Under the pieces are notes generated by a model. That model was not told the origin of the DNA. It worked only from the letters and a program-made list of their open reading frames with translations, and ran no database searches. A stretch of 43,018 nucleotides of DNA from a virus, in IMG/VR virus record IMGVR_UViG_3300036398_002478, positions 1 through 43,018 of that record. One strand, written 5' to 3'. Shown here one piece after another: positions 15,039-25,275 of the stretch; positions within the stretch are counted from its first letter, which is position 1, and every line of letters starts with the position of its first letter. Both the position numbers and the translations under genes were made by a program.

Positions 15039-16358
15039 ATGCACGCCATCGGCTACGCCCGCGTCAGCAAGGACGACCAGGCGGACAGCCTCCCAGCCCA
15101 GGTCAGCCGCCTCGAAGCCGCCGGCTGCGCCTGGGTAATCACCGACATCGAGACCGGCCGCAGCACCGATCGGGATGGCCTGCTGGAGGTCATGGCGATG
15201 GTGCAGGCCGGCGACGTGGCCGAGCTGCTGGTGACCCGCGTGGACCGGCTGGGCCGTGACGCGGCCTACACCGATGCCCTGCTGGCCCAGTGCGAACAGC
15301 AGGGCGTCTCCGTCAGGGCCCTGGACGGCGGCGCGATCGAGACGGCCACGCCCCAGGGGTTCCTGATGGCCAGGCTGCAGACGGGCCTGGCGGAGATGGA
15401 ATCGAGGATGCTGAGCCTCAGGCTGCGGCGACAGTTCGCCGTCTACCGCGCCGAGGGCCGCCACCTGCGCCGGCGCAAACCGTTCGGCTACCAGGCCGGG
15501 CCGGGCCATCGGCTGCAGCCGCACCCTGAGCAGTGGCCCCAGGCGCTGCGTGTGCTGCGGGATCTGAAACGGCTCGGGAGCTTTGCGGCGGTGAGCCGAT
15601 CGATGCCGGAGTGGTGCGACTGGACGCCGGCCGCCACCAACCTGCAGGCGTGGTTCGTCAACCCGGTCATCCGCGGGCACATCGGCCACCAGCTGGACCG
15701 TAAATCAGGCAAGGGATGGGGCCAACGGTGGGGGGAGATTCTCTACGACCAGCACCCTGCGCTGATCAGCGAACAGGACTGGCGGGAGCTTGCCGATCTG
15801 CTGCGGCGGCCGACCAACCGATTCAGGAACACTACCAGCCCCGAGGTGGCCCATGCACTCACGGGCCTGCTCCGCTGCAGATCCTGCGGCCATTTGCTGC
15901 GGCGGAACACCTCGAATGGCGTGGCCTGGTGGCGGTGCAGGCACCGGCTCTGCGCAGCCCGGGGTGGCGCCAGGGAGGATCGGATTCTGCCAGTGGTGAT
16001 CGATGCCTGCGTCGCTGAGGCCGGCCGCCTGGCGCAGCTGCTGGCTGAGCCCAAGGCCCAGGATCCGGCAGTGGCGGCAATGGCCGACGAGCTGGAACTG
16101 ATGGAGCGAATGGCCGCACGCAACCCCGAGAACCGGGCAATGGCGGCAGCGGTGGCAGAGCAGCGCCAGCGGATCGAGGCGCTGCGGAGGGTGGAGCGGT
16201 CGGCGGTGGATCCGGCGGCCTATCGGGCGATGCAGGATCCGCGATTCTTCACCTCAGGTTCGCCACAGGACCAGCGAACTGTGATGCAGGCCGTTCTTCG
16301 ATCGGTAACGGTGGGGGAACGTGGCGGCCCGATCGAACCTCTTCCTCGTAGCTGCTGA
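15039..16358 (+). CDS. Large serine recombinase (phage integrase, XisF-like)
   Basis: 439 aa, ATG at 15039. Resolvase domain with the catalytic serine in YARVS (S10, R8) and the TRVDRLGRD motif (D69, R70, R73). Then the Recombinase domain (RRKPFGYQAG onward), a zinc ribbon (LRCRSCGHLL near 281-287, WRCRHRLC near 299-306), and a C-terminal coiled coil (ADELELMERMAARN...). The architecture is that of large serine integrases and of cyanobacterial element excision recombinases. It would insert and excise the phage genome at short attachment sites; excision would need a directionality factor, for which the divergent small gene is a candidate. Confidence 0.92.
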   Translation: MHAIGYARVSKDDQADSLPAQVSRLEAAGCAWVITDIETGRSTDRDGLLEVMAMVQAGDVAELLVTRVDRLGRDAAYTDALLAQCEQQGVSVRALDGGAIETATPQGFLMARLQTGLAEMESRMLSLRLRRQFAVYRAEGRHLRRRKPFGYQAGPGHRLQPHPEQWPQALRVLRDLKRLGSFAAVSRSMPEWCDWTPAATNLQAWFVNPVIRGHIGHQLDRKSGKGWGQRWGEILYDQHPALISEQDWRELADLLRRPTNRFRNTTSPEVAHALTGLLRCRSCGHLLRRNTSNGVAWWRCRHRLCAARGGAREDRILPVVIDACVAEAGRLAQLLAEPKAQDPAVAAMADELELMERMAARNPENRAMAAAVAEQRQRIEALRRVERSAVDPAAYRAMQDPRFFTSGSPQDQRTVMQAVLRSVTVGERGGPIEPLPRSC

Positions 16359-19791: not shown

Positions 19792-20862
19792 GTGCCGGCC
19801 AGCTCCAACCAGTCCTGGTGGCTTGACAGCATCGGGCGCATCCCCCTGCTCACCCCAGCCGAGGAGATCGAACTCGGCACAGCGATCCAGCGGTGGCAGC
19901 AGCACCCCGACCCGTGCCCACCAGGGATCCGGCGCCGCGGCCAGCGGGCCCGTGATCGGTTCGTGAAGGCGAATCTGCGGCTGGTGGTGGCCTACATCAG
20001 CAAGCGTTGCCACAGGCTCACCCGGTCCTTCGACCGCGAGGATCTGACCCAGGCGGGGAACATGGGCCTGATCACCGCGGCCGAGCGGTTCGATCCGGCG
20101 AAGGGGTACCGGTTCTCCACCTACGCCTATTGGTGGATTCGGCAGGCCATCAACCGCCACTGCGACACCACCGGCCGCGCCATCGCCATCCCCGGCAGCC
20201 ACTGCCAGCACCTGGCGAAGCTCGGCCCGATCACCCGGCGGCTGGAGCGGGAGCTGAACCGCACGCCAACGCAGGCGGAAATCGCCGCAGAGCTGGGCGT
20301 CTCGCTGCGGGTGCTGGAGCAGGTGATCGAAAACGGCCGGCCGGTGGCCTCGCTGGATCAGGTCGTGACCGATGACGGGCTAGAGCTGGGCAGCCTGTGC
20401 GCCACCTACGACCGCTCACCAGAAGATGAAGAGGAACAGCGTGAACGCTGGCGGCAGGCGGAGCAGCTGCGTGGCCTGATCGCCAGGTTGGCGCCGCAGG
20501 ATCGCAGGTTGTTGTCCCTGGCCTGGGGCCTCGACGGGGTGGAGGTACCGCGGCCTGAGCTGGCCCAGCAGGAGGGGCTTTCGACACGGGCGCTGGAGGT
20601 GCGGCTGGAGCGGCTGCAGGCGTCGCTGGCGTCGCAGTCGGTGCAGTTGGTACTGGTGGCTGTGGAACGGGGGACGGTGGAGCCGAGGGATCGGAGCAGG
20701 CGGCGCCGCGAGCGGCCTGATCAGCTGGTGCTGGTGCCGGTTGAAAGGGTGAAGCCCGCGTCACCGGCGCTGCGCAGAGCTGGGGGATTCCCTCGGAACT
20801 GGGTCTGCCTCGGCGATCGGCTGCGGGTCGCTGCTGCTGGGGGGGAGTTGGTGAATGAGTGA
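19792..20862 (+). CDS. Sigma-70 family RNA polymerase sigma factor
   Basis: 356 aa from a GTG at 19792; nearby ATGs are out of frame. Region 1.2 (IPLLTPAEEIELGTAIQRW), region 2.1-2.4 (ARDRFVKANLRLVVAYIS, FDREDLTQAGNMGLITAAER, FSTYAYWWIRQAI, with intact -10 recognition and melting residues), region 3 (RTPTQAEIAAELGVSLRVLE), region 4 (LIARLAPQDRRLLSLAWGLD...LSTRALEVRLERLQASL). An extra C-terminal tail of about 70 residues rich in Arg and Val follows region 4. The LLTPAEEIELG and YAYWWIRQAI forms are those of cyanobacterial group 1/2 sigma factors. It would redirect host RNA polymerase to phage promoters; the four conserved blocks are candidate targets. Confidence 0.9.
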   Translation: MPASSNQSWWLDSIGRIPLLTPAEEIELGTAIQRWQQHPDPCPPGIRRRGQRARDRFVKANLRLVVAYISKRCHRLTRSFDREDLTQAGNMGLITAAERFDPAKGYRFSTYAYWWIRQAINRHCDTTGRAIAIPGSHCQHLAKLGPITRRLERELNRTPTQAEIAAELGVSLRVLEQVIENGRPVASLDQVVTDDGLELGSLCATYDRSPEDEEEQRERWRQAEQLRGLIARLAPQDRRLLSLAWGLDGVEVPRPELAQQEGLSTRALEVRLERLQASLASQSVQLVLVAVERGTVEPRDRSRRRRERPDQLVLVPVERVKPASPALRRAGGFPRNWVCLGDRLRVAAAGGELVNE

Positions 20863-22022: not shown

Positions 22023-22295
22023 TCACGCCGACCGCTTCCCCAGCTCCCGCGCCCACCGGTGATGCTCACCCGTCGGCTCGCCCAGTGGCGGCGCACCCTT
22101 TAACGCAAGTTCCACCTGCAGGTTGGCCGCCTTGCGCTGCAGCTCAATGATCAGGTGCTGCTGCTGGTACCAGGCCTGGATCAGCTCATCGCAGCGCTCC
22201 GCCAGCTGGTCCCGGCTCATGTGTGCAGCGGCGCGGCGGTCGCGTTCCATCTCGAAACAGCTCGACAGGCTGAGGGTGAGATCGAGGCCGAGCAT
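22023..22295 (-). CDS. nblA: NblA-like phycobilisome degradation protein
   Basis: 90 aa, ATG at 22295. Residues 4-18 carry LDLTLSLSSCFEMER and, exactly 12 residues after the Phe, HMSRDQLAERCDELIQ, followed by a long helix (AWYQQQHLIIELQRKAANLQ). Canonical NblA has LSLEQQF and, with the same spacing, MSxDQ then a long helix. NblA adaptors bind phycobiliproteins and deliver them to the Clp protease; some cyanophages carry the gene and use it to dismantle the host antenna. Its start shares CATG with a divergent small gene. Assignment rests on pattern match by eye. Confidence 0.72.
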   Translation of the reverse strand: MLGLDLTLSLSSCFEMERDRRAAAHMSRDQLAERCDELIQAWYQQQHLIIELQRKAANLQVELALKGAPPLGEPTGEHHRWARELGKRSA

Positions 22296-22485
22296 GTCCG
22301 CGCAGCAGTTGGCTCAGTCTGAGCAGTGCGAACCCCCGCCCTACATCACCGTGGAGCGTGACGCCCGTGGTGGTGCCTGCTGGGTGGTGGTGGGCCTGGG
22401 CACTGAGGTCCGCTGCTACTGCGGCCATCGGGCGGTGGCGATGCTGGAGATGATGTGCGCCAGCCGGGGGATCCCGACGCCCTAG
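22294..22485 (+). CDS. Hypothetical small protein, 63 aa
   Basis: ATG at 22294 inside the CATG shared with the nblA start. Sequence includes PPPYITVERDARGGACWVVV, GTEVRCYCGHRAVAML and ends in a short helix with MMCASRG. The strand pattern and conserved-looking Cys suggest a small folded domain. The only rightward gene between the sigma factor and the end of the window; stop 4 bases before the convergent phosphoesterase stop. Confidence 0.5.
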   Translation: MSAQQLAQSEQCEPPPYITVERDARGGACWVVVGLGTEVRCYCGHRAVAMLEMMCASRGIPTP

Positions 22486-23656: not shown

Positions 23657-24001
23657 TCACGACGGGGACACTTGAGGCTTACCCTCAGTGTGCGGACTAC
23701 TACCAATCCACCCATCAATTCGCGCTGCACGATGTACGCAGTGCCAGGCTTGGGCCTCAAACCACTCCCGCCAGTCCGTCGAGGATTTCGCCCCGTTGCA
23801 GCGGCGGCATGCCGGCACCAGGTTTTCGGCCACCGTCAGCCCGCCACGGGAGCGCGGCAGCACGTGGTCGAGGGTGTCCGCCGGGTCGGTGCAGTACGCG
23901 CACTGGTGGTTCCACTCGGCGAAGATCCGCCGGCGGAAGCGGGCCTTGGTGATTTTCTTGGGCTGGAGTTGGGTTTCGTCGATCAGGTGATCGAAGGGCA
24001 T
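23657..24001 (-). CDS. HNH endonuclease
   Basis: 114 aa, ATG at 24001 sharing one base with the previous stop (TGATG). Core: NHQCAYCTDPADTLDHVLPR and LVPACRRCNGAKSS with the H-N-H residues (DH, N of AENLVPAC, N of RRCN) and two CxxC zinc knuckles. Phage HNH enzymes often sit near terminase; here it lies between lysis and phosphoesterase genes, so packaging nicking or a homing-type role are both open. Confidence 0.85.
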   Translation of the reverse strand: MPFDHLIDETQLQPKKITKARFRRRIFAEWNHQCAYCTDPADTLDHVLPRSRGGLTVAENLVPACRRCNGAKSSTDWREWFEAQAWHCVHRAARIDGWIGSSPHTEGKPQVSPS

Positions 24002-25275
24002 CAGCCCGCCGCCTCTTGCATCACTGACACCCAGATGCGGCCCAGGCCCAGCAGAGGCAACACGCGATCCCTGAGATCCACATTGTGCAGGCGAATGCAG
24101 CCCAAGGTGGAATGCAGCGCTTGCCGTGGTGCCCATGCCCCTGGCCAGCCGCAGGCCGTGCCGCCGCCGTGAATCATGATTCCGTCCCTGCCATAGCGGC
24201 TGCCGGGCCCCTCCTGCCCTTCCTGGCCCAGCAGGTCGAATGAATACCAGCCATAGGCGCGGCGATCAGCGCTAAACGTTGCGGATGGGTCCTGCTCATA
24301 GTCGCGGTAGACCTGGCCCACCAGGTACAGCCCTGGAGGTGTATCGCTGTTGGTTACCGTCCATTCCGATTCGCCCCGCTGGCCCCGGCACAGACACGGC
24401 ACAGACCAGAGGCGCCTGCCGTCATGCGTGTAAGCCGTGAGTGTTTCAGCTCGATCATCGGCAACGAAATGGTGATCGCCAGGCTTAAGCGGCGGCGCCT
24501 TCTTCGGCCCGACCATGCCAGCGGGAATCGTGATGCCCTGCTGCGGCTCTGCTGCCGGCGCCGTGGCGGCGGACAACTGCTTCGACTGCACCAGCCCCCA
24601 CACGCGCTGCGCCTCGGCCTGGCGGCGGTTCAGGTGCGGCACGCCAGGGCGGAAATAGTGCTCGCTGAAGTAGGCCGCCGCACGGCTTGGATCCATCCCC
24701 GCAGGTCGATCCTCGAACACCCGCGTCCACCCGATCAGCGAGCCCTGCGATGGATCGTGCAGGCCGGCGTACTCCTCCGCGAAATACTGCTGCTGCCAGC
24801 TGTTGCTGTTCGGATCGAGACCCTTAGCGACGGCCGCAGGCCGCGCCTTGTCGTAGGCGGTTCGCCGCACTCCGGTGTACTGCATGGCCCCCCGGCCGGC
24901 GCCGCTGCCTGCTTCCACCACGTCGAGCTTGTCGAGCAGGGGGCGGCCAGTCTCAACGATGATGCAGCCGATGAAACCGCACGCCTCAGCTACGGTCAGC
25001 GGGCTGATCTTGTTTCGGCTGAGGCGCGAAACCTCAGGCCCCGTCAGGAATGCCAGCCATGACTGAAGATTGGCCAGCTCGCTTGAGGCCCCCGGAGCCG
25101 GAGCCGCTGCCGGTGCTGCGGGGCTGCCCTGTGCCCGCCAGAGGTCGGTGAACTCCTGCCGCTGCTCAGTGGTGGCCCGTTCCCACGCGGCTTCCCACGC
25201 GGCCAGCTGGTGCGGAGTCATCGTGCCGGCACGGGCGACGTGTTCGGCGGCGGCGCGGAAGGTGGCGAAGGTCAT
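24001..25275 (-). CDS. Cell-wall enzyme with lysozyme-like and L,D-transpeptidase (YkuD) domains
   Basis: 424 aa, ATG at 25275. A helical N-terminus and Ala/Pro linker (to about residue 65), a lysozyme/glycosyl-hydrolase-like domain (about 70-230: SPLTVAEACGFIGCIIVETG, GAGRGAMQYTGVRRTAYDKA), a Pro/Ala linker, and a C-terminal YkuD domain with HGGG (near 366) and HSTLGCIRLHN (near 384-394), the Ser-x-Gly-Cys-Ile-Arg active-site signature. Position directly after two holin-like genes makes it the endolysin. The YkuD half normally forms rather than cuts cross-links, or may have been recruited for binding or cleaving peptide stems. Confidence 0.75.
   Translation of the reverse strand: MTFATFRAAAEHVARAGTMTPHQLAAWEAAWERATTEQRQEFTDLWRAQGSPAAPAAAPAPGASSELANLQSWLAFLTGPEVSRLSRNKISPLTVAEACGFIGCIIVETGRPLLDKLDVVEAGSGAGRGAMQYTGVRRTAYDKARPAAVAKGLDPNSNSWQQQYFAEEYAGLHDPSQGSLIGWTRVFEDRPAGMDPSRAAAYFSEHYFRPGVPHLNRRQAEAQRVWGLVQSKQLSAATAPAAEPQQGITIPAGMVGPKKAPPLKPGDHHFVADDRAETLTAYTHDGRRLWSVPCLCRGQRGESEWTVTNSDTPPGLYLVGQVYRDYEQDPSATFSADRRAYGWYSFDLLGQEGQEGPGSRYGRDGIMIHGGGTACGWPGAWAPRQALHSTLGCIRLHNVDLRDRVLPLLGLGRIWVSVMQEAAG

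What the first reader, a model, noticed from the sequence alone, without database searches (positions are those of the whole stretch)
22023..22295. NblA-like antenna-degradation gene carried by the phage
LTLSLSSCF and, at the canonical 12-residue distance, MSRDQ followed by a long helix match the NblA pattern. NblA directs phycobilisomes to Clp proteolysis. The protein is longer than usual (90 aa) and has an extra C-terminal Pro/Gly segment. It would release amino acids and lower light harvesting during infection.
Basis: partly seen in the sequence, partly recalled or inferred. Interest (0 to 1): 0.7.

Follow-up and report, generated by a model that had tools for sequence, protein, structure and literature searches.

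The report
NblA-like gene in Synechococcus siphophages
A small gene in a virus of light-harvesting cyanobacteria encodes a distant relative of NblA, the protein that cyanobacteria use to have their own antennae chewed up; it turns out to be a standard but unrecognised gene, next to the sigma-factor gene, in a whole group of siphophages of picocyanobacteria.

Summary
The 90-aa ORF (22023-22295, minus) is real: purifying selection acts in this frame and 37 environmental viral contigs plus phage S-LBS1 encode relatives. Deeper comparison rescues it. A profile built only from this viral family and its sigma-linked relatives ranks the four distinct NblA sequences of the Protein Data Bank as its top four of 177,635, aligned without gaps. 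Profile-profile comparison with cyanobacterial NblA gives 92-95% probability, with at least twice the score of any shuffled control. NblA-like proteins of picocyanobacterial genomes form a bridge. AlphaFold gives the NblA helix pattern at the same positions, plus a longer second helix and an extra third helix. The gene lies convergent to a sigma-factor gene in 62 of 73 sigma-bearing viral contigs and in isolates S-LBS1, S-CBS1 and KBS-S-2A, all infecting Synechococcus; there it is annotated as hypothetical. Best reading: a divergent, extended NblA-family Clp adaptor, a near-core gene of these cyanosiphoviruses. Phycobilisome degradation itself is inferred, not shown. New variant of a known kind.

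The parts
22023..22295 (-). NblA-like gene, 90 aa (22023-22025 is the stop codon)
   Evidence: ORF; purifying selection; relatives; homology to NblA
22224..22268 (-). predicted helix 1 (residues 10-24), following the LSL motif (residues 8-10), which aligns with NblA LSLEQxF
   Evidence: AlphaFold2 model, pLDDT above 90 here; NblA control model has H9-22
22098..22214 (-). predicted long helix 2 (residues 28-66), starting after the MSRDQ loop; longer than NblA helix 2
   Evidence: AlphaFold2 against NblA control H27-55
22026..22097 (-). C-terminal extension, residues 67-90: Pro/Gly linker and third helix (76-89), with conserved P69, H78, A82, R83 in the close family; absent from ordinary NblA
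   Evidence: alignments; AlphaFold2
22294..22485 (+). 63-aa ORF of unknown function whose ATG overlaps the NblA-like ATG head to head (CATG)
   Evidence: conserved beside the NblA-like gene in nearly all close relatives; small opposite-strand genes in the same place in S-LBS1, S-CBS1 and KBS-S-2A
19792..20862 (+). RNA polymerase sigma factor (cyanobacterial RpoD-like), convergent with the NblA-like gene
   Evidence: Pfam and PHROGs; 77% identical to the S-LBS1 sigma factor; linkage in 62 of 73 contigs
24001..25275 (-). lysozyme with phage tail lysozyme and YkuD domains, upstream of the NblA-like gene on the same strand as the structural genes
   Evidence: Pfam; same order lysozyme, small opposite-strand gene, NblA-like, sigma in S-LBS1 and S-CBS1

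Best explanation
The gene encodes a divergent, extended member of the NblA family. Shown by computation: it is a conserved gene, homologous over residues about 5-55 to NblA, with the same helix-loop-helix plan, in phages whose isolated relatives infect Synechococcus. Inferred: like NblA it dimerises, the N-terminal LSL region engages the ClpC chaperone, the long helix engages a phycobiliprotein, and the pair brings antenna proteins to Clp proteolysis during infection, releasing amino acids and lowering light absorption. The longer helix 2 and the third helix are special to the phage family and probably tune dimerisation or target choice. Because the gene lies downstream of the lysozyme and structural genes on the same strand, I infer late expression.
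For: A profile from 24 diverse viral members, with no NblA in it, ranks 1ojh, 2q8v, 3cs5 and 2qdo (all NblA) 1st to 4th of 177,635 PDB sequences, E 0.003-0.005, gapless, in the expected register; narrower profiles already gave 3cs5 at E 0.04. hhalign with canonical NblA: probability 92.4%, 51 columns without gap, score 38.1 against a maximum of 17.3 in 200 column shuffles and 9.6 reversed; with the wider family 94.8%, 38.5 against 16.5. The wider-family HMM finds canonical NblA at E about 2e-7 to 7e-7 (Z=1000). Bridge family in picocyanobacterial genomes: Pfam NblA up to 23.4 bits, E 8e-5; it hits the window protein at 22 bits. Helix boundaries H10-24 and H28-66 against H9-22 and H27-55 in an NblA control model. 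Hosts: S-LBS1 on phycoerythrin-rich Synechococcus TCC793 (PMC6157547), S-CBS1 on CB0201, KBS-S-2A on WH7803. The window protein scores better with canonical NblA (12.3 bits) than the S-SCSM1 protein already annotated as NblA (3.0 bits). Phage NblA proteins have been shown to cause phycobilin loss in laboratory strains (reported in PMC9602691).
Against: No direct hit to Pfam NblA or NCBIfam NblA at any useful threshold. Of LSLEQxF only LSL is invariant in the close family. The most divergent members conserve an N-terminal W-[LM] and a helix-2 end (RIAELE) that NblA lacks, which may mean a different partner. The single protein does not beat its own shuffles with the canonical NblA HMM. Foldseek found nothing, but it also failed for a true NblA model, so this carries no weight. 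No expression or binding data.
Confidence: 0.6

Rival explanations
1. It is of NblA descent and still a ClpC adaptor or ClpC-binding protein, but not for phycobilisomes: the altered helix 2 and extra helix redirect Clp to another host or phage protein (for example a host sigma factor or regulator), or occupy ClpC as an inhibitor.
For: N-terminal LSL region kept best, while the end of helix 2 and the C-terminus changed and are conserved in new ways; always convergent linkage to the sigma-factor gene; host picocyanobacteria carry several NblA-like paralogues (up to four matches per genome), in the loci read here not next to phycobilisome genes.
Against: No evidence of any other substrate; the host of S-LBS1 has phycobilisomes; helix 2 still aligns with NblA without gaps through residue 55.
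Confidence: 0.25
2. It is an unrelated small helical-hairpin phage protein (for example a structural, chaperone or DNA-binding accessory protein) that resembles NblA by convergence of an LSL N-cap and amphipathic helices.
For: No curated model hits it; short helical proteins give weak spurious matches (GCN4 and others); position near lysis and structural genes.
Against: With the diverse profile all four distinct NblA sequences rise above every coiled coil in the PDB; shuffled and reversed NblA profiles score less than half; independent bridge through picocyanobacterial proteins; isolated hosts are cyanobacteria.
Confidence: 0.12
3. The ORF is not a gene; the coding frame is on the other strand.
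For: A 120-aa plus-strand frame overlaps it and a conserved plus-strand ORF starts at the same CATG.
Against: Purifying selection in this frame, dN/dS 0.04-0.09 against near relatives; protein conserved in dozens of phages and annotated as a CDS in S-LBS1, S-CBS1 and KBS-S-2A.
Confidence: 0.02

Closest known systems
NblA of cyanobacteria (Pfam PF04485; PDB 1ojh, 2q8v, 3cs5, 2qdo)
   Same: helix-loop-helix in the same positions up to residue 55, LSL before helix 1, M-S-[RH]-[DE]-Q before helix 2 at the same spacing, gapless profile alignment
   Different: EQxF of the LSLEQxF motif not kept; helix 2 longer; extra Pro/Gly linker and third helix; no hit to the Pfam model
Phage NblA of cyanomyoviruses and cyanopodoviruses (Ma-LMM01, PaV-LD, S-SCSM1 ORF237; PMC9602691, PMC4103541)
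   Same: small NblA-type protein in a cyanophage; S-SCSM1 NblA matches the picocyanobacterial bridge family
   Different: phages of other kinds; the S-SCSM1 type has a picocyanobacterial REIDxxED signature instead of MSRDQ; 54 aa, no third helix
Picocyanobacterial NblA-like proteins (for example MSEPLALSLGQQFELERMSRAIDATAD...LLQAWHSQ)
   Same: LSLxxxFExER and L[LI]QAW[HY] shared with the window protein; 22 bits
   Different: one residue longer between the helices, different C-terminus; I found no functional test of them in the papers held
SLBS1_A32, S-CBS1 gp26, CPKG_00010 (cyanosiphovirus hypothetical proteins)
   Same: same gene in the same place: after the lysozyme or late genes, convergent to the sigma factor
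   Different: 56% identical to the window protein in S-LBS1; S-CBS1 and KBS-S-2A versions are much more divergent, 70-81 aa, and largely lack the C-terminal extension

Membership tests
NblA (PF04485) | hit to the curated profile above its cut-off (25 bits) | tested here: not met
   no PF04485 hit for the window protein; one of 24 relatives at E 0.036
NblA (PF04485) | homology over the whole domain by profile-profile or profile-sequence comparison | tested here: met
   hhalign 92-95%, 50-51 gapless columns, controls far lower; PDB top four are NblA
NblA (PF04485) | short helix, loop, long helix at the same positions | tested here: met
   H10-24, H28-66 against NblA control H9-22, H27-55
NblA (PF04485) | N-terminal LSLEQxF motif (region reported to bind ClpC; PMC4103541) | tested here: inconclusive
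   LSL invariant in the close family, EQxF replaced by SSCF, SRQAM or PTQLE
NblA (PF04485) | length near 60 aa | tested here: not met
   90 aa with a third helix; divergent relatives in isolates 70-81 aa
NblA (PF04485) | four-helix-bundle dimer | not tested
   no multimer prediction was run
NblA (PF04485) | binds phycobiliproteins and ClpC and causes bleaching | not testable with these tools
   needs expression and binding assays
phage-carried nblA | lies in a phage of a phycobilisome-bearing host | tested here: inconclusive
   G000 is a virus record with phage structural genes; nearest isolate S-LBS1 infects phycoerythrin-rich Synechococcus TCC793. The window's own host is inferred from that and was not tested directly

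The most novel reading that the evidence does not exclude
Siphophages of picocyanobacteria share an NblA-derived protein, near-core and fixed beside the sigma-factor gene, that has gained a new C-terminal element and now steers the host ClpC protease to a target other than, or in addition to, the phycobilisome.
Probability: 0.22. Interest if true: 0.75.

Novelty: new variant of a known kind. Interest (0 to 1): 0.5.

Why it matters
Phage nblA was reported from myoviruses and podoviruses, and the S-LBS1 paper names none. Finding it as a near-universal gene of the sigma-bearing cyanosiphoviruses would make antenna dismantling, or another use of the Clp adaptor, a general strategy of a phage group reported to lack psbA and psbD. 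S-LBS1, S-CBS1 and KBS-S-2A were isolated on cultured Synechococcus, so the idea is directly testable.

Tried and rejected
Direct Pfam, PHROGs and NCBIfam scans gave only noise; phrog_2553 (12 bits) is no support, since true NblA and picocyanobacterial NblA-like sequences hit phrog_23930 and phrog_27081 instead. tblastn of canonical NblA in phages found nothing useful. A scan of bacterial genomes with the viral alignment found no relative, so no prophage or host copy of this exact family was seen. Foldseek against PDB and BFVD found nothing, and the positive control with a true NblA model also failed to find NblA, so the method is blind to this fold. A non-coding or wrong-strand origin was rejected by codon substitution. 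A holin or lysis role was considered because of the lysozyme neighbour and set aside: by inspection the sequence has no transmembrane stretch. Checking the published phycobiliprotein-binding residues of NblA was not possible, because the primary structure papers are not held.

Full report
Observation. The minus-strand ORF 22023-22295 exists as described, 90 codons from an ATG. Its record is a 43-kb virus sequence with primase, helicases, a serine-type integrase, tape measure, tail and head genes. The frame is under purifying selection: against near relatives, which differ mostly at third positions, dN/dS is 0.04-0.09; against distant ones about 0.3-0.65.

Relatives. Pattern scans found 23 and then 37 viral contigs that encode the protein and one isolate, Synechococcus phage S-LBS1, protein SLBS1_A32, 56% identical. 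S-LBS1 infects the phycoerythrin-rich Synechococcus TCC793; its paper does not mention nblA. Scanning with the neighbouring sigma factor gave 79 contigs; of the 73 with at least 1.5 kb beyond the sigma gene, 62 carry a member of the family, always on the opposite strand so that the two genes converge, and 11 lack it. Among isolates, S-CBS1 gp26 (host CB0201) and KBS-S-2A CPKG_00010 (host WH7803) are members in the same place; S-CBS3, which has a related sigma factor, shows no such gene there. So this is a near-core gene of one group of cyanosiphoviruses and not a stray acquisition. The hosts of the environmental contigs are not known.

Is it NblA? Curated models do not hit it. Three lines nevertheless agree. 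First, profiles built without any NblA sequence find NblA: the close family finds 3cs5 at E 0.04, and the diverse family ranks 1ojh, 2q8v, 3cs5 and 2qdo first to fourth in the PDB, E 0.003-0.005, gapless and in register. Each E-value alone is modest; that all four distinct NblA sequences lead 177,635 sequences, ahead of every coiled coil, is not. Second, hhalign against an NblA alignment of 50 sequences gives 92.4% over 51 gapless columns, score 38.1, where 200 column shuffles reach 17.3 at most and the reversed profile 9.6; the wider family gives 94.8%. Third, a bridge: a search of cyanobacterial genomes with PF04485 turned up a borderline member in a small genome, whose relatives form an often multi-copy family in that picocyanobacterial group. 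These score up to 23.4 bits with Pfam NblA, just under the 25-bit cut-off, and their HMM hits the window protein at 22 bits, first among 827 window frames and above 20,000 shuffles. They also match S-SCSM1 ORF237, annotated as phycobilisome degradation protein. A caution: the single window protein with the canonical NblA HMM (12 bits) does not exceed the best shuffle (13.1), so the case rests on profiles.

Structure. AlphaFold2 with 22 family members gives helices 10-24, 28-66 and 76-89, mean pLDDT 84. A control run on Nostoc-type NblA gives helices 9-22 and 27-55. The first two helices thus correspond; helix 2 is about ten residues longer and the third helix is new. Foldseek is uninformative here, since the NblA control did not find the NblA crystal structures either.

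Mechanism. Established knowledge: NblA is a helix-loop-helix adaptor of about 60 aa, crystallising as four-helix dimers, that brings phycobilisome proteins to ClpC (PMC7966870); a motif near the N terminus binds ClpC and one near the C terminus binds phycobiliproteins (PMC4103541). Phage versions are expressed in infection and cause phycobilin loss when expressed in laboratory strains (PMC9602691). In the window protein LSL of LSLEQxF is kept and EQxF is not; the region after NblA's end is continued into a longer helix, a Pro/Gly linker and a helix with conserved P69, H78, A82 and R83. I therefore infer an NblA-type Clp adaptor, most likely still for the phycobilisome, with a real chance that the target has changed. 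Homology to NblA I put near 0.88, the full reading with phycobilisome degradation near 0.6. Position after the lysozyme and structural genes on the same strand suggests late expression; this is inference, and no promoter-like site was found directly upstream of the gene.

Novelty. Phage nblA is known from myo- and podoviruses. I found no report of it in picocyanobacterial siphoviruses in the papers held; the subscription literature, including the Nadel 2019 survey, could not be read. I rate it a new variant of a known kind.

Noticed in passing
22294-22485 (+): 63-aa ORF starting head to head with the NblA-like gene, the two ATGs sharing CATG; conserved in nearly all close relatives, and small opposite-strand genes occupy the place in S-LBS1 (A31), S-CBS1 (gp25) and KBS-S-2A (CPKG_00009). 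Function unknown; neither gene then has a leader outside the other's coding sequence.
   Followed up: partly
24001-25275 (-): Lysozyme gene joins a phage tail lysozyme domain to a YkuD L,D-transpeptidase domain, which looks unusual for a phage endolysin.
   Followed up: no
L198-L224 (picocyanobacterial genomes): Picocyanobacteria carry one to four NblA-like small proteins per genome that fall under the Pfam cut-off; the commonest copy sits near what look like an HtrA/Deg-type protease and an ABC-F ATPase in the loci read, not beside phycobilisome genes.
   Followed up: partly
L225:2483-2710 (Cyanophage PSS2 ACT65611) and L227:295-555 (S-CRM01 g108): Unannotated members of the picocyanobacterial NblA-like family in two isolated cyanophages; PSS2 infects Prochlorococcus MIT9313, which has no phycobilisomes (own knowledge), so NblA-like proteins may have other uses.
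   Followed up: partly
L251-L255, L257-L260, L271, L289: Sigma-bearing contigs with ample flanking DNA that lack the NblA-like gene; what replaces it was not examined beyond HMM scans.
   Followed up: partly
15039-16358 (+): Large serine recombinase or integrase, suggesting a temperate phage, in line with the integrase reported for S-LBS1.
   Followed up: no
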